Positions 47,616 to 62,683 of a stretch of 64,000 nucleotides of DNA are shown piece by piece. The position numbers and the translations under genes are program-made. Position 1 is the first letter of the stretch. Every line of letters starts with the position of its first letter. Source of the stretch: Halobacterium noricense (GTDB taxonomy: Archaea; Halobacteriota; Halobacteria; Halobacteriales; Halobacteriaceae); the NCBI RefSeq assembly GCF_021233435.1, contig NZ_CP089468.1, positions 248,001 through 312,000 on the forward strand, in the 5' to 3' direction. Under the pieces are notes generated by a model. The model was not told the DNA's origin. It did no database searches and worked only from the letters and a program-made list of their open reading frames with translations.

Positions 47616-50600
47616 ATGATTGTGAAGAGATCGACTATCGCGACCGCGATGACGATTGTTCTCATCGTTGCCGTTCTCCCACCATTCTTCGTCAATGGAG
47701 TAGCTGCAGGTGAGTTCACGGCCATCAGTTGTACCCAAGTGGACACGAATAGCGGGGTTTCGGTGGAGATTATCGGAATCGAGGCCAGCGACGGCGACTG
47801 CCAGGTGACCCCCGACGAGACGCTGAACATCACCCTCCAGGACTCGATTGTCGGCACGCTCGGTGCGGACGACATCGTCGTTGTCGACGTGGACACCAAC
47901 ACGACGAACGACGAACTCAACAACTTCGGCTTTCTGGGCCTTGGCTCCGACCGCTACCTCATTAATATCACTCACGCCAAGTTGACCACCCTCAGCGACG
48001 AGCCGAACGACAAACTCATCATCCGGGTGGAGTCGAGGGCGCTAACTCTCCTCGGGACGGGCCACACCGACGCGTACCGTGTGTTCGCGGATTCGGATGG
48101 CGACGGCATCGCCGACAGCACGGAGGTGACCGGTGACGCCGACGGCGACGGCACTCCAAACTACCTCGATACGGACTCGGACGGTGACGGCATCGCTGAC
48201 AGCACGGAGGGGACCGGCGACGCCGACGCCGACGGCACGCCGAACTATCTTGATGCAGATTCCGACGGCGACGGCATCGCCGACGGCACGGAAGGTTCGG
48301 GGGATGCCGACGCCGACGGAATCCCGAACCATCTGGATTCGGACGCGGACGGCGACGGGCTCTCCGACAGCTCCGAAGGGACGACTGATTCCGATGGCGA
48401 CGGGGCACCGGATTATCTCGATGAAGATTCGGACGGTGATGGCATCTCCGACCGCACGGAGGGTGCGGCCGACACTGACGGTGACGGGACACTGAACTAC
48501 CTGGATCCGGATTCAGACGGCGACAGCATCTCCGATGGCACGGAAGGAACCGGGGACGCTGACGGCGACGGTATTCCGAACTACCTCGATACGGATTCGA
48601 GCGGTGACTCCGACGTTGACGGCGACGGCATCTCGGACGTGACTGAGGGCACCGGTGACGCCGACGGTGACGGCACTCCAAACTACCTCGATACGGATTC
48701 GGACGGTGACGGCATCTTGGACGGCACGGAAGGCACCGGCGACGGGGACGGCGACGGTACCTCAAACTACCTAGACACCGACGCCGACGGTGACGGCATC
48801 TCCGACAGTTCCGAAGGGACGACTGATTCCGACGGCGACGGCACGGTCGACTATCTGGATACGGATTCGGACGGCGACGGCGTCTCCGACAGCACGGAAG
48901 GATCGGGGGACACCGACGGCGATGGCACCCCAAACTACCTCGACTCTGACGCGGACGGCGACAGCATCGCCGACGGCACGGAGGGAGCGGGCGACGCGGA
49001 TGGCGATGGCACGGCCGACTATCTGGATACGGATTCTGACGGTGACAGCATCGCCGACGGCACGGAGGGAGCGGGCGACGCGGATGGCGACGGCACCCCG
49101 AACTACCTCGATGCTGACGCGGATGGCGACGGCATCGCCGACAGCACGGAAGGCACCGGCGACGCGGATGGCGATGGCACGCTGAGCTACCTCGACACCG
49201 ACGCCGACGGTGACGGCATCTCGGACGGAACAGAAGGGACCGGTGACATCGACAGTAACGGTATCCCGAACTATCTAGATACTGACTTCGACGGCGACGG
49301 AATCTCGGACGTGACTGAAGGTACCGGCGACGCCGACGGCGACGGCACCTCGAACTACCTCGACACGGATTCTGACGGTGACGGCATCTCGGACTTGACT
49401 GAAGCCACCGGCGACGCCGACGGCGACGGCACCCCGAACTACCTCGATACAGATTCCGACGGCGACGGCATCGCCGACAGCACGGAGGATTCGATCGACG
49501 GGGACGGCGACGGCATCCCGAACTACCTCGATACCGACGCCGACGGTGATGGGACCTCCGACAGGTCGGAAGGCACCGGTGATGCCGACGGTGACGGTAT
49601 CCCGAACTACCTGGACGCCGATGCGACGGATTCGGACGGCGACGGCATCGCCGACAGCACGGAAGGCACCGGCGACGGGGACGGCGACGGCACCCCGAAC
49701 TATCAGGATCTGGACTCTGACGGCGATGGCGTCTCCGACAGCGATGAGGGCTCAATCGACGCGGACGGCGACGGTTCCGGGAACTACCTAGACGAAGATT
49801 CGGACGGCGATGGCTTTTCGGATGGGACTGAAGGCACCGGCGACGGGGACGGCGACGGCATCCCGAACTACCTAGACACCGACGCCGACGGTGATGGGAC
49901 CTCCGACAGGTCGGAAGGCACCGGTGATGCCGACGGTGACGGTATCCCGAACTACCTGGACGCCGACAGCGACGGCGACAGCATCTTAGACAGCATCGAG
50001 GGTGTTAGTGACACCGATGGTGACGGAACGTCAAACTACCTTGACAGCGACGCCGACGGTGACGGAATAACCGATAGTGACGAGGGTACGGATGACGTGG
50101 ACGGCGACAGTACCCCGAACTACTTCGATACAGATTCCGACGGCGACGGCATCGCCGACGGTATAGAAGGGATGATTGATTTTGACGGCGACGGGACGGC
50201 GGATTATCTAGATGGGGACTCGGACGGTGACAGTATCGACGACAGCACAGAGGGCTCGGGAGACACCGACGGTGACGGAACCCCGAACTATCTGGATTCG
50301 GACTCCGACGGCGATGGCATCGCCGACAGCACGGAAGGCACCGGCGACACGGATGGCGATGGCACGCTGAGCTACCTCGACACCGACGCCGACAGTGACG
50401 GCATCTCGGACGGGACGGAGGGGGTCGGTGACGTGGACGGCGACGGCACCCCAAACTACCTCGATACGGATTCCGACGGGGACGGCATCGCGGACAGTGA
50501 CGAGGGTCCGAGCGACGCGGACGGCGACGGCACCCCAAACTACCTCGACACCGACGCCCACGGTGATGGCATCCCAGATAGCACCGAGGGGACGGGCGAC

Positions 50601-51707
50601 GCCGACGGTGACGGTACCCCGAAATACCTGGACGCCGATTCGAGCGGTGACTCCGACGGCGACGGCATCGAGGACCATATCGAAGGTACCGGTGATGTCG
50701 ACGACGATGGGACACCGAACTACCTCGACAGTGACTCCGACGGCGACGGCATCTCTGACGGGATGGAGAGGGTCGGTGACGCGGACGGCGACGGCACGCC
50801 GAACCATCTCGACACGGATGCCGACGGTGACGGCATCTCGGACAACGAGGAAGGGACGACTGATTCCAGCGGCGACGGGACGTCGAACTACCTCGACACG
50901 GATTCAGACGATGACGGCATCACCGACAGCGCAGAAGGCGCCGGTGATGCGGATGGTGATGGGACGCCGAACTACCTCGATACAGATTCGGACGGTGACA
51001 GCAACTTCGACGGCACGGAAGGAACCGGAGACGTGGATGGGGACGGGACACCGAACTATCTCGATACGGATTCGGACGGTGACGGCGTCGCCGACAGCGA
51101 GGAAGGGACCGGCGATGCGGATGGCGACGCGACACCGAACTACCTCGACAGTGATTCCGACGGGGACGGAGTCTCCGACGGTGCAGAAGGTACGACCGAC
51201 GCGGATGGCGACGGCACGCCGAACTACCTTGACGCCGATTCGAGCGGAGACTCCGACGGCGATGGCATCCCGGATGGGTCAGAGGGAACCGGCGACGCCG
51301 ACAGCGACGGCACGCCGAACTATCAGGATATGGACTCTGACGGCGACGGTATCTCGGACGTCAAGGAAGGGGTCAGTGACGCCGACAACGACGGGAGGGC
51401 GAACTATCTGGATGCGGATTTAGATTCAGACGGCGACGGGATCTCCGACGGCACTGAAGGTACCGGTGACGCCGACGGTGATGGCACGCCGAACTATCTG
51501 GATGCCCTCGCAGACGGCGGTACCACCGGAACGACCGATAGCACACCGACCCAGAAGAAGACGGATACTGATGGTTACCGGCAGCCGTTCTTCGAGGACA
51601 CGGGAGAGTCCATCTGGTTCCTGGGCGCAGGCCTCGCCCTGCTGTTGCTCCTTCTCATCTTGGTGTTGGCACGGCGACGGGACGAGGAGGAAGAGGAATC
51701 TCCCTAA
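47616..51707 (+). CDS. Giant calcium-binding-type surface protein with about 40 TSP3-like repeats
   Basis: 1363 residues. Signal peptide (about 1-31), a 120-residue N-terminal beta domain, then about 40 tandem units of 28 residues (84 bp) of the form DSDGDGIADSTEGTGD plus ADGDGTPNYLDT, i.e. two DxDxDG loops per unit as in thrombospondin type-3 repeats. Five or six units carry short extra DSSGDS- or ATDS-type inserts. The C-terminus has a Thr/Lys linker, a membrane helix (SIWFLGAGLALLLLLLI) and a charged RRRDEEEEE stop. It should be a long, Ca-stiffened surface fibre. The gene follows the dead IS with a short AT-rich promoter region. Confidence 0.9.
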   Translation: MIVKRSTIATAMTIVLIVAVLPPFFVNGVAAGEFTAISCTQVDTNSGVSVEIIGIEASDGDCQVTPDETLNITLQDSIVGTLGADDIVVVDVDTNTTNDELNNFGFLGLGSDRYLINITHAKLTTLSDEPNDKLIIRVESRALTLLGTGHTDAYRVFADSDGDGIADSTEVTGDADGDGTPNYLDTDSDGDGIADSTEGTGDADADGTPNYLDADSDGDGIADGTEGSGDADADGIPNHLDSDADGDGLSDSSEGTTDSDGDGAPDYLDEDSDGDGISDRTEGAADTDGDGTLNYLDPDSDGDSISDGTEGTGDADGDGIPNYLDTDSSGDSDVDGDGISDVTEGTGDADGDGTPNYLDTDSDGDGILDGTEGTGDGDGDGTSNYLDTDADGDGISDSSEGTTDSDGDGTVDYLDTDSDGDGVSDSTEGSGDTDGDGTPNYLDSDADGDSIADGTEGAGDADGDGTADYLDTDSDGDSIADGTEGAGDADGDGTPNYLDADADGDGIADSTEGTGDADGDGTLSYLDTDADGDGISDGTEGTGDIDSNGIPNYLDTDFDGDGISDVTEGTGDADGDGTSNYLDTDSDGDGISDLTEATGDADGDGTPNYLDTDSDGDGIADSTEDSIDGDGDGIPNYLDTDADGDGTSDRSEGTGDADGDGIPNYLDADATDSDGDGIADSTEGTGDGDGDGTPNYQDLDSDGDGVSDSDEGSIDADGDGSGNYLDEDSDGDGFSDGTEGTGDGDGDGIPNYLDTDADGDGTSDRSEGTGDADGDGIPNYLDADSDGDSILDSIEGVSDTDGDGTSNYLDSDADGDGITDSDEGTDDVDGDSTPNYFDTDSDGDGIADGIEGMIDFDGDGTADYLDGDSDGDSIDDSTEGSGDTDGDGTPNYLDSDSDGDGIADSTEGTGDTDGDGTLSYLDTDADSDGISDGTEGVGDVDGDGTPNYLDTDSDGDGIADSDEGPSDADGDGTPNYLDTDAHGDGIPDSTEGTGDADGDGTPKYLDADSSGDSDGDGIEDHIEGTGDVDDDGTPNYLDSDSDGDGISDGMERVGDADGDGTPNHLDTDADGDGISDNEEGTTDSSGDGTSNYLDTDSDDDGITDSAEGAGDADGDGTPNYLDTDSDGDSNFDGTEGTGDVDGDGTPNYLDTDSDGDGVADSEEGTGDADGDATPNYLDSDSDGDGVSDGAEGTTDADGDGTPNYLDADSSGDSDGDGIPDGSEGTGDADSDGTPNYQDMDSDGDGISDVKEGVSDADNDGRANYLDADLDSDGDGISDGTEGTGDADGDGTPNYLDALADGGTTGTTDSTPTQKKTDTDGYRQPFFEDTGESIWFLGAGLALLLLLLILVLARRRDEEEEESP

Positions 51708-56075: not shown

Positions 56076-56699
56076 ATGAAAGAGAAATACGACCTCAGTC
56101 CTAGCAAAGATACCTATCGCTCTTTGAAATCCGACGTTTCACCCGTATCTGCGGTAAAGGAGCTTATCGATAATGTATTAGATAATTGGGTTAGGGTGGA
56201 CCAGAAGAAGCCGGACGTAACAATTGACATCGAATTTGATGCCGAGGAGGGCCATTTTCGTATTCGAGACGACAGCGGTGGTATTGAAGAGGAACATATT
56301 GACAAGATATTCGCCTTAGGTGAGACAACAGTCGGAGAAGTCCCCAAATCGATTGGGGCTTTCGGGATGGGAGCGAAAAAGGCCATCGTACGTATAGGTA
56401 AAACTGCAACAATCAAGAGCCGAACTCAATCTAGCTCCTCCGGATACGGTTTTACTGTTGATGAAGAGTGGCTGAACGAGCCAAATAACTGGATGGTAGA
56501 GAGCGAAGAATTCCCGGAGATGGAGCTAGGAACTACAGTAATATCTATAGAAGATCTCCAGCTGTCTTTTGCTAACAGTGATGATGAGGAGGAGAGGGAG
56601 GTCAGGTTTACTGATCCGGAGCAGTTTTTGGATGAATTAGTTGACGAGCTTAGCCAAACATCAGTACCTCACAAAGCATCGCCAGTTAGCCTGACCTGA
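56076..56699 (+). pseudogene. GHKL ATPase (MORC/MutL-like), 5' half, interrupted by an IS
   Basis: 207 codons. Full GHKL ATP-binding site: N box KELIDNVLDNW at residues 28-38, DDSGGI at 65-70, GAFGMGAKKA at 94-103. The frame runs into the ISH3-type element near residue 203 and stops there. The 3' half resumes in an open frame at 58070. Such ATPases next to DNA methyltransferases are known from MORC-like restriction-modification loci described by Aravind and colleagues. The fragment may still fold as a nucleotide-binding domain, but the intact protein cannot be made. Confidence 0.8.
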
Positions 56700-56760
56700 G
56701 CCATCTGTTCTGTTGTGATGAGTCGTCAGTAACGGTCGAGCAACGCTGATCGAAGAGGGA

Positions 56761-56800
56761 GCTGTCGCTGTCGGCGGCAGTCAGCCGCCGACGCGACAGC
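56761..56800. terminator. Strong hairpin downstream of the ISH3-type transposase
   Basis: A 17-bp stem with a single bulged T: GCTGTCGC and GTCGGCGGC pair with GCCGCCGAC and GCGACAGC around a 5-base loop. It lies 36 bp after the transposase stop, so it may end its transcript or block read-through. Confidence 0.55.
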
Positions 56801-56836
56801 GTTGCCACTCCTGAAGGGAGCTTGCTCGGTCGGTGA

Positions 56837-58003
56837 CTACCGGTGGAACCGGTCGTCAGGTGGCCGATTCGCGGGGACGGCCCGACGCACCGCGAGGGCC
56901 GTCCACGCAGCCCGCCGAACCATATTCACGAACTCCTTGTACGGCCACCACCAGAGGCGACGCCCGCCTCGGCGCGGCGTCGCCACGTATTCGTAGTGCA
57001 GATACCGCCACGCATTCTGCAAGAGCAGACTCACCACAACGTACAGAAGTCTCACCGTCGCGTTTCGCGTCGTTGTCGTCGCTATCGCTTGCTCGGACAA
57101 GCGATAGCTTGACTCGATACCGAAGCGTTTCGAGTAATGGTATCGAGCCTGGCGTGGTGTCTCGATAAACGGCGCGTCAGCGGCGTAGCCGTGACGCGCC
57201 ACACCGTGGTCGTCGTACCGTCCGTTCAGGTACGTACAGTCGATGTAGACGGGAAACTCGACGGTCCAGCTGTGACCGTCGAGTTTCCCCGTCAGATCGT
57301 GTTGAATGACGCGACTCCACCCTTCCGCAAGTTCCTGCTGAATCGTCTTCCCCCACTGAATGATCGGGACCACGTAGGCGTAGTTGTGCGCCTGCAACAG
57401 CGTGAGACACTTGCTGTCGTAGAATCCGCGATCAAGGTAGACGGCCTTGACATCGGCGTCAAGGCCGTCGAGTACACCAAGAAACTCAGCGAGGACACTG
57501 CTGGCGGTGTCGCCGTCTTCGAGACGGCGCACCGCCAGCGTATATCGTTTGTTCTTCACACGCGCGTAGAGTGTGGCGTAGGCGTGGAATGCGGTGGTTC
57601 CACGCTTGGCTTCCGAGTGATAGAGGTTCTCCGTGTCGTCTTCATCACCGTAGTAGGGCCGCAGGTGGAGGTCTGCGCAGACCTCCACCTGCTCAGGAAG
57701 CAGTTCGACGATATCTCGTCGAAGAAGCGTGTTAGCGACTCGTTCGAGCCGTTTGGGCTCGAACTTCGTCCGGAGATGGTAGAGGATCGTGTTGGCAGCG
57801 GGGCCGTTCTGACTCGACGCACAGAGCGTAGAGACAGAGGTCCCGTCGGCGCAAGCGCCGACGAGGACCTCATAGATGCCCTCAGTAGTGATTTCAGCGT
57901 TATTGGCTAAGGAAAGCGGAACTTCCTCCTCAAGGGTGTTGACGAGAAAGTTAAGAAGCTGGTCCTCGTGAATCTCACTGTCTGCTTGCTGGGTCGTAGA
58001 CAC
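56837..58003 (-). CDS. ISH3-family transposase
   Basis: 388 residues. N-terminal helical domain (LLNFLVNTLEEEVPLSLANN), DDE core: VCADLHLRPYYG near 108, VKAVYLDRGFYDSKCL near 190, and KRFGIESSYRLSEQAIA near 293 carrying the Glu. The sequence matches what I recall of ISH3. The frame is intact, so the element could move. Confidence 0.9.
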   Translation of the reverse strand: MSTTQQADSEIHEDQLLNFLVNTLEEEVPLSLANNAEITTEGIYEVLVGACADGTSVSTLCASSQNGPAANTILYHLRTKFEPKRLERVANTLLRRDIVELLPEQVEVCADLHLRPYYGDEDDTENLYHSEAKRGTTAFHAYATLYARVKNKRYTLAVRRLEDGDTASSVLAEFLGVLDGLDADVKAVYLDRGFYDSKCLTLLQAHNYAYVVPIIQWGKTIQQELAEGWSRVIQHDLTGKLDGHSWTVEFPVYIDCTYLNGRYDDHGVARHGYAADAPFIETPRQARYHYSKRFGIESSYRLSEQAIATTTTRNATVRLLYVVVSLLLQNAWRYLHYEYVATPRRGGRRLWWWPYKEFVNMVRRAAWTALAVRRAVPANRPPDDRFHR

Positions 58004-58069
58004 ACCTTCAGCAAGCAGACGTTCTAACTAAGCGGCTTTGTGATGTACTGAACATACGAGGAATTTCTA

Positions 58070-59593: not shown

Positions 59594-60697
59594 ATGTCGA
59601 AATCAATTGGAATTGAGACGAGGAAAAACCCTACTAACTCTGAGGACGGTCAAAAGAGAGATACACAGTTTCCATCAACAAGATACCAAGGTTGTAAGAG
59701 GCAAATTATCGACGAGCTGTGGGATATTATTAGTGATATCGAACATGACTCCCTTTTAGATCTATTTGGTGGGACAGGCGTAGTCTCGTATAAGGCCAAA
59801 TCTGCCGGGAAGAGGGTCTTGTACAACGATGTTCTATCATTTAATGGACGGGTTGGGAAAGCACTTATTGAGAATTCGAAAATACGTCTTACTCCTCAAG
59901 ACGTGGATAATCTTCTCACTTTTGACCTAGATTCTTATCCATCCTTCATAGAGGACGAATTTGAAGGGATATACTTCACCGATGAGGAGAATCGGTGGTT
60001 GGATCGAATGCGGAAGAATATAACAGTAAAGCTGGATAATCGATATAAGAAGGCGATTGCGTTTGCTGCGGTAGGGCAGGCGTGTCTTACAAAACGCCCT
60101 TATGCGTTATTTCACCGCGCGAATCTGTATATGCGCCAAAACGATGTTGAGCGGTCATTTGGTAATAAAACTACTTGGGAGAGGCCATTTGAGCACTACT
60201 TTCGGAAGTTTGTAATCGAATATAATCGTGGAATTTTCAATAACTACCGTGAGAATAGAGCCTTCTCAAGGGACGCTACTTCATGGGATTATCCACAGAC
60301 TGACCTTGTTTATTTAGACCCTCCATATTATGCGAAGGACAAGTCGAATCCAGTTTCAGATTATCATCTATACTATCACTTCTTAGAGGGGTACATTAAG
60401 TACGCCGAATGGCCGAGTATGATTGATCGGTCAGTTAAAACAAAGAAGATTGAGTATGATAGGTCACCCTGGAATGATCCGGATTTGATTTATGACGTCT
60501 TTGAACGGATTTTTAGAGAATGTTCCGACCGGAAAATCGTTCTTTCTTATAACACGGAATCCGCACCAACCCCGGATGAGATCCAAACGCTACTCTCGAA
60601 GTATAAAGAGCAAGTGAAAGTAGTGGATATTCAACACAAATATTCGCTTAATGCAAGTGACTCAATCCAAGAGCTTGTGTTTGTTGGGTATGACTAA
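59594..60697 (+). CDS. D12-class N6-adenine DNA methyltransferase
   Basis: 367 residues. Motif X STRYQGCKRQI at 28-38, AdoMet-binding DLFGGTG at 56-62, catalytic DPPY at 242-245. Dam/D12-type enzymes methylate adenine N6 in a short site. It has its own T-rich promoter-like box (TTTTTACTTAG) 25-30 bases upstream and is followed 23 bp later by the cyclase gene on the same strand. No separate restriction nuclease gene is visible; the GHKL ATPase upstream is the natural partner, now broken. Alternatively the gene is an orphan modification enzyme. Confidence 0.88.
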   Translation: MSKSIGIETRKNPTNSEDGQKRDTQFPSTRYQGCKRQIIDELWDIISDIEHDSLLDLFGGTGVVSYKAKSAGKRVLYNDVLSFNGRVGKALIENSKIRLTPQDVDNLLTFDLDSYPSFIEDEFEGIYFTDEENRWLDRMRKNITVKLDNRYKKAIAFAAVGQACLTKRPYALFHRANLYMRQNDVERSFGNKTTWERPFEHYFRKFVIEYNRGIFNNYRENRAFSRDATSWDYPQTDLVYLDPPYYAKDKSNPVSDYHLYYHFLEGYIKYAEWPSMIDRSVKTKKIEYDRSPWNDPDLIYDVFERIFRECSDRKIVLSYNTESAPTPDEIQTLLSKYKEQVKVVDIQHKYSLNASDSIQELVFVGYD

Positions 60698-60720
60698 GTG
60701 AATAGAATAGATTCCTAGTA

Positions 60721-61497
60721 ATGTCTGGGCAATTGACTCCACCGAGAAAACGCAAAATCAGAAATCGAGTCGAAGACCGTCTGTCCAAGGTTGAGGACCG
60801 ACTGGAGAGTATCTCTTCGGGACGAACTCAACCGAGGATGGAGTATCTCCGCCTTAATGAGTCTAAAGAATACCGGTTGGGTATGGTATTCCTCGACATA
60901 AACTCGTTTTCTGACTATCTCTTTGATAATTCGGAAGATGAGGCACTTCGAATGTTGAATATATTTATTCCGGAGGTATTAGATATAATTCGCGATTATG
61001 GTGGTGTATTTGAGAAGAACACTGGGGATGGAGTTCTGGCGTATTTTGGTGCCGGCAAATCCGATACCGTCGCTGTCCGAACAATCTTGGATTTCTTGGC
61101 TACTGTAAAGTGGGCGCTAGCAAACGTCATTAACCCACAACTTCAGGAGAAAGGTATCGCACCGATCTCAATTAGTTGCGGTGCAACTTATGGCACAACT
61201 TACTTATCCAGGATTGGAGTAAAGAGTGGAAATCAGCAGATGAATCGCTTAACCGCTGTTTCTAAAATCGCGAATACCGCCTCTCGTCTTGAAGAAAAAG
61301 CAGGAATGAATGAATATCTTGTAGGCCCCCGTATTGAGTACTATTCTCAAGAAACCTCATGGGATTCTTGGATGGAATTTCGAGAAGTGTTGGAATATAG
61401 GTGGAGCCCGAAATCGGATTCGGACGAGCGTCTCTTTCGAATCTATGACTTCGTTGGCGAATGGAATAGTACCAAAACAGAGAACCTTGAACCATAA
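60721..61497 (+). CDS. Class III nucleotide cyclase, probable Pycsar cyclase (PycC)
   Basis: 258 residues. After a short charged N-terminal helix, the catalytic domain opens with LGMVFLDINSFSDYL (metal Asp59). GVFEKNTGDGVLAYFG follows with the second metal Asp103. Later, ISISCGATYGTTYLSRIGV and NRLTAVSKIANTASRLEEKA match the class III fold. It has no membrane, HAMP or receiver domain; the closest architecture I know is the stand-alone PycC of bacterial Pycsar systems, which make cCMP or cUMP after phage infection. Two bases separate it from a small membrane-protein gene of the Pycsar effector type. Substrate (A, G, C or U) cannot be told from sequence by eye. Confidence 0.75.
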   Translation: MSGQLTPPRKRKIRNRVEDRLSKVEDRLESISSGRTQPRMEYLRLNESKEYRLGMVFLDINSFSDYLFDNSEDEALRMLNIFIPEVLDIIRDYGGVFEKNTGDGVLAYFGAGKSDTVAVRTILDFLATVKWALANVINPQLQEKGIAPISISCGATYGTTYLSRIGVKSGNQQMNRLTAVSKIANTASRLEEKAGMNEYLVGPRIEYYSQETSWDSWMEFREVLEYRWSPKSDSDERLFRIYDFVGEWNSTKTENLEP

Positions 61498-61499
61498 TC

Positions 61500-61991
61500 A
61501 TGGACGAAAAATTAGACCAAGCTGAATTTTCCAAGCTCACTAAAGACCATTTAAACTCTTATATAAAGTTAGCCAATCAGAAGGCCTCCATTCTGCTGAC
61601 CGCGCAACTAGCCTTTTTAGGGATTTTTATAAATGGCCTGCGTCAACCGACGCTCAAGGAAGATCAGCTTCTATTGGTAGTAACGACACTTACGGCTATT
61701 TCCGCAGTGATTGCAGCATTCTATGCGGCTAGAACAATCTATCCAAATACTCCCGAAACTACCCAGGGGCTTCTATTATGGGATTCCATAGTTGAGAAGG
61801 GGTTAGACAAGTACAAGGAAGAGATCGTCAGTGCTGACGAGGATGCCTATATAGATGAGCTAATAGAAGAGAATTATCAGCTAGCGCGTGTCTCCAAGAA
61901 GAAATATCAGAATTTGAGGTTCTCCATTATTTCAACGGGGATGATGGTTTTGTTCTCCTTGTTCGTTGGAAGTATCCTCCTATTGCGATGA
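61500..61991 (+). CDS. Probable Pycsar membrane effector (PycTM / DUF5706-like)
   Basis: 163 residues with three hydrophobic helices (about 29-47, 57-76 and 141-162). The N-terminal YIKLANQKASILLTAQLAF and the AARTIYP after helix 2 are the features I associate with Pycsar_TM/DUF5706 effectors. A soluble helical part (85-140) lies between helices 2 and 3. In bacteria the cyclic nucleotide triggers such proteins to damage the cell membrane and stop the virus. Start ATG two bases after the cyclase stop, clearly one operon. Confidence 0.72.
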   Translation: MDEKLDQAEFSKLTKDHLNSYIKLANQKASILLTAQLAFLGIFINGLRQPTLKEDQLLLVVTTLTAISAVIAAFYAARTIYPNTPETTQGLLLWDSIVEKGLDKYKEEIVSADEDAYIDELIEENYQLARVSKKKYQNLRFSIISTGMMVLFSLFVGSILLLR

Positions 61992-62149
61992 GCCGAGATT
62001 GCACAGATTTTGTTGGACCACCTACGACGTAGGAATTCTCGAGGTGCGCTCGAAAGCGTGTTAGAATATAACCTAGGCCAGATTCGGCCCGCATACTGAT
62101 AGACTGTCAATCGCTGGCTTAACGGCCCAAGCTCGTGAATCCACCTGGC

Positions 62150-62683
62150 ATGCCGCGTCCGAAGAAGTATAGCGACGAGGAACTTCTCGACAACCTCCGC
62201 GAACTCGCTGAGCGAGTGTCGGAGGCACCACCGACAAAGGCTCAAATGAACGACCGTGGGCCGCACGGCGCACGCACCTATCAAGACCGATGGGGCAGTT
62301 GGTCGGCAGCTGTCGAAGCAGCTGGCTTTGAACCACGCGAGGTACCTGACCACTTCGAAGAACGACCGGACGCATGCCCACTCTGCGGCTCCGAGGAGAC
62401 CGGCTTGGACTTCCACCACTGGAAGTACGCAGACGGTCCAGGCGACGATGAGGAAGTCGGCTGCTACTTCTGTCGCGACTGCCACGACCGGATCCACGAG
62501 GGCAAAGCGAAGACCGCAAACACAAACTGGTTGGTACACTGCGTCGCGAATCTCGTCGCCGTACACATCGAAAACCACCCAAAAGAGACTGATGTCGAAG
62601 CCATCATCGACCGCTACAGCATGACGGACGTCCATCCTCTCGTTAAGCGCGAGCTCCAGAAGCACATCGACACGTCGACGTAG
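62150..62683 (+). CDS. HNH-type nuclease with homing-endonuclease-associated repeat
   Basis: 177 residues from the ATG at 62150. N-terminal repeat: DEELLDNLRELAERVSEAPP, then RTYQDRWGSWSAAVEAAGFEP, the helix-turn-helix repeat found with halobacterial homing-type nucleases. C-terminal domain: CPLCGSEETGLDFHHWKYAD and CYFCRDCHDRIHEG, with four Cys for zinc and the HNH-like His residues. It may cut DNA or be a DNA-binding relative. GC is higher than in the flanking sequence, a sign of separate arrival. Confidence 0.78.
   Translation: MPRPKKYSDEELLDNLRELAERVSEAPPTKAQMNDRGPHGARTYQDRWGSWSAAVEAAGFEPREVPDHFEERPDACPLCGSEETGLDFHHWKYADGPGDDEEVGCYFCRDCHDRIHEGKAKTANTNWLVHCVANLVAVHIENHPKETDVEAIIDRYSMTDVHPLVKRELQKHIDTST

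What the first reader, a model, noticed from the sequence alone, without database searches (positions are those of the whole stretch)
59594..61991. Pycsar-type antiviral operon in an archaeon, led by a DNA methyltransferase
A stand-alone class III cyclase (Asp59 and Asp103 in the metal positions) is followed after 2 bp by a three-helix protein with Pycsar_TM/DUF5706-like features. This is the two-gene layout of bacterial Pycsar. In addition, a D12 adenine methyltransferase sits 23 bp upstream on the same strand, making a three-gene operon. Pycsar is described from bacteria; I know of no characterised archaeal example, and the methyltransferase link would be new. Family calls are by eye.
Basis: partly seen in the sequence, partly recalled or inferred. 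Interest (0 to 1): 0.88.

Follow-up and report, generated by a model that had tools for sequence, protein, structure and literature searches.

The report
Haloarchaeal Pycsar joined to methylase–ATPase module
A salt-loving archaeon carries a predicted virus-triggered suicide alarm (a Pycsar cyclase and membrane protein) that in a few related species travels together with a DNA-marking enzyme and a DNA-clamp-like ATPase, hinting that DNA marks may tell this alarm what is foreign; in this genome the ATPase gene is broken by a transposon.

Summary
In detail: MTase 59594-60697, cyclase 60721-61497, PycTM 61500-61991, one strand, gaps 23 and 2 bp. PycTM passes Pfam PF18967's cut-off; the cyclase matches 13 PADLOC PycC models. 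Archaeal Pycsar is not new as a prediction; my searches found none characterised. The same four families sit together in three other haloarchaea, twice as MTase-ATPase-PycC-PycTM with ATPase and PycC 2 bp apart or overlapping by 4 bp. The linked ATPases form one clade (100/99), three of the four linked PycCs another (96/94), although the MTase was exchanged. Best reading: a Pycsar variant triggered by an R-M-like MTase plus ATPase sensor. Linkage is shown by comparison; sensing, antiviral role and the nucleotide made are inferred. By single sequence and by fold the cyclase is no closer to PycC than to adenylate cyclases, and Lys99 leaves pyrimidine use open. The copy here is probably disabled.

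The parts
56076..56660 (+). GHKL (MORC/Hsp90-like) ATPase, N-terminal part, open up to the insertion sequence
   Evidence: HATPase_c_3 PF13589 E 3.2e-12; 52-54% identical to the three other Pycsar-linked ATPases; GHKL motif residues E32, N36, D68, G71, G100, G102 (L092 numbering) invariant in the 8 aligned rows, window included
56661..58051 (.). insertion sequence splitting the ATPase gene; transposase ORF 56837-58003 on the - strand
   Evidence: 17-bp terminal inverted repeats 56661-56677 / 58035-58051, 94% complementary; ACA on both sides, a short possible target duplication; 388-aa ORF matches a DDE transposase only weakly in Pfam (E 0.016); 90% identical to an ORF beside a truncated PycC in L031
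58052..59551 (+). GHKL ATPase, C-terminal part, open reading frame up to the stop
   Evidence: open from the end of the insertion sequence to 59551; aligned by the genome search to residues 201-720 of the L026 ATPase
59594..60697 (+). D12-class N6-adenine DNA methyltransferase, motifs DLFGGTG and DPPY
   Evidence: PF02086 4.6e-20; PADLOC MTase_II 1.8e-65; DPPY at residue 242; 58% identical to the MTase of L029
60721..61497 (+). PycC-like stand-alone class III nucleotide cyclase (D59, D103)
   Evidence: PADLOC PycC 1.4e-16 and 12 further PycC models; profile best PDB match 8jsf EaPycC 1.2e-11, next 2w01 adenylate cyclase 2.5e-11; model pLDDT 80
61500..61991 (+). PycTM-like membrane effector with three hydrophobic segments
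   Evidence: PF18967 2.1e-12 over cut-off; PADLOC PycTM 2.2e-28; hydropathy

Best explanation
A four-gene variant of Pycsar found in haloarchaea. The D12 methyltransferase marks host DNA. The MORC/Hsp90-like GHKL ATPase clamps on DNA and acts as sensor, responding to DNA that lacks the mark or is otherwise foreign. ATP-driven closure of the ATPase switches on the neighbouring PycC, which makes a cyclic mononucleotide. That messenger opens or oligomerises PycTM in the membrane, and the infected cell stops before virus release. It is thus R-M-like recognition with a second-messenger membrane effector in place of a nuclease. Shown here: gene content, conserved linkage, co-inheritance of ATPase and PycC, kept catalytic motifs. 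Inferred from the named families: MTase, cyclase and effector roles. Inferred only: the ATPase as the PycC trigger and methylation as the self mark. In this genome the ATPase gene is split by an insertion sequence, so the pathway is probably untriggerable here although the other three genes are open.
For: Same four families together in 4 of 12 haloarchaeal genomes with a strong cyclase match: MTase-ATPase-PycC-PycTM in L026 (Halarchaeum nitratireducens, L092) and L028 (Natronomonas sp. LN261, L094), with ATPase-PycC spacing of 2 bp and a 4-bp overlap; convergent pairs in L029; the window. Co-occurrence of the ATPase (14 of 391 genomes at E<=1e-45) with PycC (12 of 391 at E<=1e-30) in 4 genomes has hypergeometric P 4e-4 before adjacency is counted. 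Linked ATPases form one clade, 100/99 on the N part; window+L026+L028 PycCs 96/94. Window and L026 MTases belong to different D12 subfamilies (BLAST E 0.048 only), so the MTase was exchanged while the link was kept, as R-M specificities are. The ATPase pairs with a D12-type MTase in 7 of 20 neighbourhoods that lack PycC. Fold: SMCHD1, MORC3/4 and Hsp90 relatives; MORC-family GHKLs in R-M operons are known (PMC2292703, passages).
Against: 8 of the 12 strong-match genomes show no such ATPase-MTase pair beside PycC, so Pycsar evidently exists without it; in one of these (L027) the contig begins 587 bp before PycC, but its genome gave no ATPase match. All four linked PycCs as one clade have 94/94 in one tree but only 79/80 in another. 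On the C part of the ATPase L029 is not placed with the other three. In L029 the two pairs are convergent, not one transcript. In 18 more distant PycTM loci my HMMs found one GHKL and no D12 MTase nearby, and Pfam showed one N6_N4 and one Eco57I DNA methylase among 66 neighbours, in the 25 of 93 families displayed. Nothing here tests protein contact, DNA sensing or infection. The co-occurrence thresholds were chosen after seeing the hits, and the ATPase query was a linked one. Single-sequence and fold searches put class III adenylate or guanylate cyclases ahead of PycC, and Lys99 is what I recall of adenylate cyclases.
Confidence: 0.42

Rival explanations
1. Guarded R-M: MTase plus ATPase is a self-sufficient restriction or DNA-silencing module, and Pycsar is a back-up that fires when a virus disables that module, as the PrrC nuclease guards a type I R-M system (PrrC recalled).
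For: ATPase-MTase pairs stand without PycC in 7 of 20 neighbourhoods. L097 carries PycC-PycTM directly after a type I operon with HsdM, HsdS and HsdR. L168 has an N6/N4 MTase overlapping PycTM by 4 bp. L115 has a C5 MTase and another GHKL ATPase 1.3 kb past PycTM.
Against: No nuclease among the four genes of the window operon; the 2-bp and overlapping ATPase-PycC joins and the shared clade suggest a tighter link than a back-up needs.
Confidence: 0.25
2. Two independent defence modules that merely share a low-GC mobile island; the MTase and ATPase have nothing to do with the cyclase.
For: Plain two-gene Pycsar is the commoner form: 8 of 12 genomes show no such pair beside PycC. The genes of the island are 42-48% GC against 66.9% for 1-50000. 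L029 has the pairs convergent. Distant PycTM loci seldom have either gene.
Against: The same pair kept in four genomes, clade structure of ATPase and PycC, and 2 bp / -4 bp spacing.
Confidence: 0.25
3. Ordinary cAMP signalling: an adenylate cyclase with a membrane partner, not antiviral.
For: K99 and T101 differ from both solved pyrimidine cyclases discussed in PMC11224242. Single-sequence PDB search: 2w01 2e-8 and CyaB 4.1e-8 ahead of BcPycC 3.8e-6 and EaPycC 3.8e-5. Foldseek ranks CyaC first, EaPycC sixth, BcPycC 29th; VIA Z 22.2 for CyaB and CyaC, 21.4 for EaPycC.
Against: PycTM at the effector position over the curated cut-off; cyclase matched by 13 PycC models; profile best PDB hit is EaPycC, narrowly; adjoining PycTM in 11 of 12 genomes; sporadic distribution.
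Confidence: 0.05
4. The ATPase is a CapK-like kinase that only controls transcription of the operon.
For: CapK is a GHKL protein encoded upstream of immune operons (PMC13373217, passages).
Against: In the ATPases only HATPase domains reach Pfam's cut-offs, no STAS or HTH; none of the four linked genes is a CapS-like STAS protein.
Confidence: 0.03

Closest known systems
Pycsar (PycC + PycTM), bacterial
   Same: stand-alone class III cyclase next to a PycTM effector; both match curated Pycsar models
   Different: extra MTase and GHKL ATPase; base-recognition positions F57/K99/T101 differ from EaPycC F100/R142/Q144 and BcPycC Y50/D94/R97; host is a haloarchaeon
MORC / paraMORC GHKL ATPases in R-M operons (PMC2292703, passages)
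   Same: GHKL ATPase gene beside a DNA methylase gene; model of the L092 ATPase close to MORC3/4 and SMCHD1, tied with Hsp90
   Different: partner is a cyclase plus membrane effector; no helicase or nuclease among the four genes; adenine methylases are said to be rare in the published set
Haloarchaeal two-gene Pycsar, e.g. Haloterrigena salifodinae pHTS138 (L114)
   Same: same cyclase family and PycTM
   Different: no such ATPase or MTase in the 14.7 kb looked at
Type I R-M operon with PycC-PycTM in Syntrophaceae UBA6255 (L097)
   Same: R-M genes directly upstream of Pycsar
   Different: HsdM/S/R instead of D12 MTase + GHKL ATPase; bacterial PycC 27% identical
Haloarchaeal ATPase-MTase pair without Pycsar, e.g. 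Halorhabdus tiamatea plasmid pHTIA (L116)
   Same: GHKL ATPase followed by a Dam-family MTase
   Different: no cyclase or PycTM annotated in the 11.5 kb shown; the seven such ATPases placed in the tree form a separate clade

Membership tests
Pycsar | class III cyclase with two metal-binding Asp | tested here: met
   D59 and D103 invariant in 15 aligned sequences; PF00211 over its cut-off
Pycsar | PycC-family profile match | tested here: met
   13 PADLOC PycC models, best 1.4e-16; but by single sequence ordinary class III cyclases of the PDB score better than PycC structures
Pycsar | effector PycTM (or PycTIR) encoded next to the cyclase | tested here: met
   PF18967 47.8 bits vs cut-off 27.2; adjacent in 11 of 12 haloarchaeal genomes
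Pycsar | pyrimidine (UTP/CTP) base-recognition residues | tested here: inconclusive
   F57 as in EaPycC; K99/T101 unlike EaPycC or BcPycC, but shared with five bacterial relatives, four of which have a PycTM match next door
Pycsar | N-terminal helix said to be a PycC hallmark (PMC11224242) | tested here: inconclusive
   helix 7-27 in the model, aligned in 8jsf (from residue 5) and 6yii (from residue 3); residues 26-45 have low confidence, and the CyaB and CyaC rows were aligned with low-confidence stretches left out, so their later start is no clean contrast
Pycsar | cUMP/cCMP production and virus-triggered cell death | not testable with these tools
   needs biochemistry and infection
Type II R-M | DNA methyltransferase with AdoMet and DPPY motifs | tested here: met
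   PF02086; DLFGGTG and DPPY
Type II R-M | cognate restriction endonuclease encoded next door | tested here: inconclusive
   no nuclease among the four genes; an HNH_repeat gene 143 bp downstream (62135-62683) differs in GC (59%)
MORC/paraMORC ATPase | GHKL motifs plus S5-like domain | tested here: met
   motif residues invariant in 8 aligned rows; model of L092 matches MORC3/4 over about residues 11-370 and SMCHD1 over 12-310, Z 16-17, tied with Hsp90
MORC/paraMORC ATPase | MORC-specific signature beyond GHKL | not tested
   no MORC-specific profile at hand

The most novel reading that the evidence does not exclude
A DNA-modification-gated second-messenger immune system: an R-M-like MTase and MORC-type ATPase read self versus non-self DNA and switch on a cyclic-nucleotide abortive-infection arm. 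This would answer what triggers at least one Pycsar clade and would be a prokaryotic parallel to DNA-sensing, cyclic-nucleotide innate immunity.
Probability: 0.4. Interest if true: 0.88.

Novelty: new variant of a known kind. Interest (0 to 1): 0.7.

Why it matters
As far as I recall, how Pycsar cyclases sense infection is unsettled. A cyclase inherited together with a DNA methyltransferase and a DNA-clamp-like ATPase gives a concrete, testable sensor. It would join restriction-modification and nucleotide signalling, two branches of immunity usually treated apart, in an archaeal setting where Haloferax volcanii is reported to contain cCMP and cUMP although its authors found no pyrimidine cyclase by BLAST (PMC8646023, passages).

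Tried and rejected
MTase as leader of a three-gene operon: rejected; its partner is the ATPase. HNH gene 62135-62683 as the missing nuclease: not adopted, different composition and 143 bp away. Searches to separate PycC from adenylate cyclases: no separation. Single sequence: 2w01 2e-8 ahead of BcPycC 3.8e-6 and EaPycC 3.8e-5; profile: EaPycC 1.2e-11 narrowly first; Foldseek: CyaC first, EaPycC sixth, BcPycC 29th; VIA Z: CyaB and CyaC 22.2, EaPycC 21.4, BcPycC 19.8, 6yii 19.7. ATPase by sequence: PADLOC gave only weak TmtA matches and the PDB nothing significant (best E 0.097, topoisomerase VI B). Virus-borne copies: one distant cyclase contig (L101), no phage record at E 1e-5, 12 distant GHKL relatives in viral contigs, 24-33% identical. 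Pycsar-wide MTase link: not supported. My HMMs found one GHKL (L166) and no D12 MTase within 5 kb of PycTM in 18 other loci; of 66 neighbours scanned with Pfam, one matched N6_N4 and one Eco57I, but only 25 of 93 families were displayed, so this is a lower bound. Two of the 20 fetched loci (L158, L159) gave no PycTM with my HMM and were left out. ATPase C-terminal half: nothing over a Pfam cut-off and low model confidence beyond about residue 365. Rows dropped: five weak cyclase matches (G217, G295, G332, G333, G348; E 4e-5 to 3e-8, in frames of 534-575 codons) from the count of 12; L024b, L099bac, L031_frag and L101vir from the tree. The AU test was set up after seeing the first tree.

Literature: (held library only). 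Judging from listings, abstract starts and the passages opened, none describes a Pycsar with an ATPase-MTase pair or a characterised haloarchaeal Pycsar; one search listed 30 of 64 papers. Tal et al. 2021 was not read; it is cited through PMC8646023.
Full report
CHECK OF THE OBSERVATION. Pfam: D12 methyltransferase PF02086 E 4.6e-20; Guanylate_cyc PF00211 2.4e-5, 24.4 bits against a cut-off of 21.9; PycTM PF18967 2.1e-12, 47.8 bits against 27.2. PADLOC: 13 PycC models match the cyclase (best 1.4e-16) and the membrane protein matches PycTM at 2.2e-28. NCBIfam gave nothing over its cut-offs. The membrane protein has three hydrophobic segments. This is the only PF18967 match at E<=0.001 in the genome.

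Upstream, ORF 56076-56699 matches HATPase_c_3 (3.2e-12) and HATPase_c, and the frame resumes at 58052 and runs open to 59551. Between them is an insertion sequence with 17-bp terminal inverted repeats at 56661-56677 and 58035-58051, a 388-aa transposase-like ORF on the - strand, and ACA on both sides. The genome search aligned the two pieces to residues 6-203 and 201-720 of the ATPase of L026, the one stop in the second piece lying at the end of the insertion sequence. So the element interrupts one ATPase gene, whose stop is 42 bp upstream of the MTase. The genes of the stretch are 42-48% GC against 66.9% for window 1-50000, as expected of acquired DNA. The host is in the same family as Halarchaeum nitratireducens, a haloarchaeon.

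COMPARATIVE EVIDENCE. In 391 genomes drawn from the class, 17 matched the cyclase, 12 of them strongly (E<=1e-30; the other five, E 4e-5 to 3e-8, lie in much longer frames and were not counted). Of the 12, 11 have PycTM next to the cyclase. Four of the 12 also have the ATPase and a D12 MTase: the window; L026/L092 (Halarchaeum nitratireducens; MTase-ATPase-PycC-PycTM, ATPase-PycC gap 2 bp); L028/L094 (Natronomonas sp. LN261; same order, 4-bp overlap); L029 (PycC-PycTM convergent with ATPase-MTase, one base between the PycTM and MTase stops). Spacings use the first start codon of each ORF. The other eight show no such pair within the stretches fetched; in L027 the contig begins 587 bp before PycC, but its genome had no ATPase match. 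A second draw of 392 genomes of the order, in which the strong matches were all genomes already seen, added no further strong cyclase match. Further haloarchaeal cyclases came from genome contigs (Halorarius halobius, Halorubrum sp. CBA1125) and plasmids (Haloterrigena salifodinae, Haloplanus sp. GX21). None of these four has this ATPase family beside the cyclase, but the Haloplanus plasmid has a C5 MTase overlapping a GHKL ATPase without BLAST similarity to ours, 1.3 kb downstream. The genomes of Halorarius and Halorubrum CBA1125 gave only weak GHKL matches (E 2e-8).

The ATPase family reached E<=1e-45 in 14 of the 391 genomes (70 at E<=0.001, many of them weak). Its overlap with the 12 cyclase genomes is 4, hypergeometric P 4e-4; the thresholds were set after seeing the lists and the query was a linked ATPase, so this is a guide. 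Of 20 ATPase neighbourhoods that lack PycC, 7 have a D12-type MTase beside the ATPase, so ATPase-MTase is a module of its own; one is annotated on a Halorhabdus tiamatea plasmid. On the N-terminal piece the four Pycsar-linked ATPases form a clade (100/99) apart from that seven-member group (100/98); on the C-terminal piece window+L026+L028 have 95/82 and L029 is unresolved. In the PycC tree the four linked cyclases group at 94/94, or 79/80 with other rows, window+L026+L028 then having 96/94; an AU test, set up after the first tree, rejects the window cyclase grouping with L022, L023 and L025, p 0.025. The window MTase is 58% identical to that of L029 but has no meaningful BLAST similarity to that of L026 (E 0.048). 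So the MTase subfamily was exchanged while the four-gene set persisted.

THE PROTEINS. By single sequence the cyclase's best PDB matches are ordinary class III cyclases (2w01 2e-8, CyaB 4.1e-8), ahead of BcPycC 7r65 (3.8e-6) and EaPycC 8jsf (3.8e-5); with a profile of ten haloarchaeal cyclases EaPycC comes first by a little (1.2e-11 against 2.5e-11). The model (pLDDT 80) is ranked by Foldseek with CyaC first (7.6e-16), EaPycC sixth and BcPycC 29th; VIA-align gives CyaB and CyaC Z 22.2, EaPycC 21.4, BcPycC 19.8 and 6yii, the clade A PycC of PMC11224242, 19.7. The alignments to 8jsf and 6yii begin at model residues 5 and 3 and take in the N-terminal helix; those to CyaB and CyaC begin at 43, but were made with low-confidence stretches left out. 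PMC11224242 (sections 4 and 6 read, other passages) gives specificity residues F100/R142/Q144 for the CTP enzyme and Y50/D94/R97 for the UTP enzyme. By spacing from the metal Asp residues the window has F57, K99, T101, invariant in 15 sequences including five bacterial ones, four of which have a PycTM match next door. A Lys there is what I recall of adenylate cyclases, so the nucleotide is open. The ATPase model (of L092; pLDDT 56, useful to about residue 365) matches SMCHD1 (Z 16.8), MORC3 (16.3), TRAP1 (16.2) and MORC4 (16.0), ties on this scale; by plain Foldseek E-value Hsp90 TRAP1 chains come first and MORC4 26th. GHKL motif residues are conserved, in the window's N part too. The MTase keeps DLFGGTG and DPPY.

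BEYOND HALOARCHAEA. R-M links to Pycsar recur but are not the rule. L097 (Syntrophaceae) has HsdM, HsdS and HsdR before PycC-PycTM, with a PIN protein and a 310-aa protein between them; L168 an N6/N4 MTase overlapping PycTM; L166 a 717-aa protein upstream of PycTM-PycC that my GHKL HMM finds at 3.7e-7 and Pfam does not. In 18 other PycTM loci, L166 and L168 among them, that was the only GHKL and no D12 MTase was found; among 66 neighbours Pfam showed N6_N4 and Eco57I methylases once each in the 25 of 93 families displayed. PF18967 matched 12 of 392 genomes of the window's phylum (9 over the cut-off) and 14 of 395 of a bacterial phylum (13 over).

MECHANISM. Shown: gene content, linkage, co-inheritance, motifs. 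From family knowledge: the MTase marks adenine, PycC makes a cyclic mononucleotide, PycTM damages the membrane. Inferred: the ATPase detects foreign or unmarked DNA and activates PycC. MORC-type ATPases in R-M operons were proposed to loop DNA between recognition and cleavage sites (PMC2292703, passages). Main rivals are a guard arrangement and mere island neighbourhood. The insertion in the ATPase suggests the window's copy cannot be triggered; loss of the ATPase rather than the MTase is what the model would tolerate, but that is one case.

NOVELTY. Archaeal Pycsar is already predicted: PMC8646023 (passage) cites Tal 2021 for pyrimidine cyclases in a few euryarchaea; PMC11291487 (passage) lists Pycsar among systems more frequent in Asgards; plasmid annotation names the effector. 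The four-gene set was not found in the searches listed under Tried and rejected. I call it a new variant of a known kind.

Noticed in passing
L031 9533-11362 (Halorubrum lacusprofundi plasmid region) and window 56661-58051: An ORF 90% identical to the transposase splitting the window ATPase lies just after a truncated PycC with no PycTM found; L032's PycC carries a stop. So 3 of the 12 haloarchaeal loci look damaged.
   Followed up: partly
L097 1711-11377: Type I R-M genes (HsdM, PIN protein, HsdS, 310-aa protein, HsdR) running straight into PycC-PycTM, then a KAP NTPase, in a Syntrophaceae MAG.
   Followed up: partly
L115 6962-12623: Haloplanus plasmid: PycC-PycTM, a HhH-GPD glycosylase, then a C5 MTase overlapping a different GHKL ATPase.
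   Followed up: partly
L024 10378-11355; L114 5947-6924: A second, divergent class III cyclase (325 aa) head-to-head with PycC in Natrialba and Haloterrigena.
   Followed up: no
L123 5887-9219: Viral contig (IMG/VR) with a distant GHKL ATPase and a D12 MTase two genes downstream.
   Followed up: no
L073, L075 downstream of ATPase-MTase: Genes with weak STAND-NTPase matches, under the cut-off, follow the ATPase-MTase pair; possibly another effector arm.
   Followed up: no
window 47616-51707: 1363-aa acidic protein made of DSDGDGIxDxTEG-like repeats (calcium-binding look) with a C-terminal hydrophobic segment.
   Followed up: no
window 62135-62683: HNH_repeat (PF18780) gene 143 bp after PycTM on the same strand, of different GC content.
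   Followed up: no
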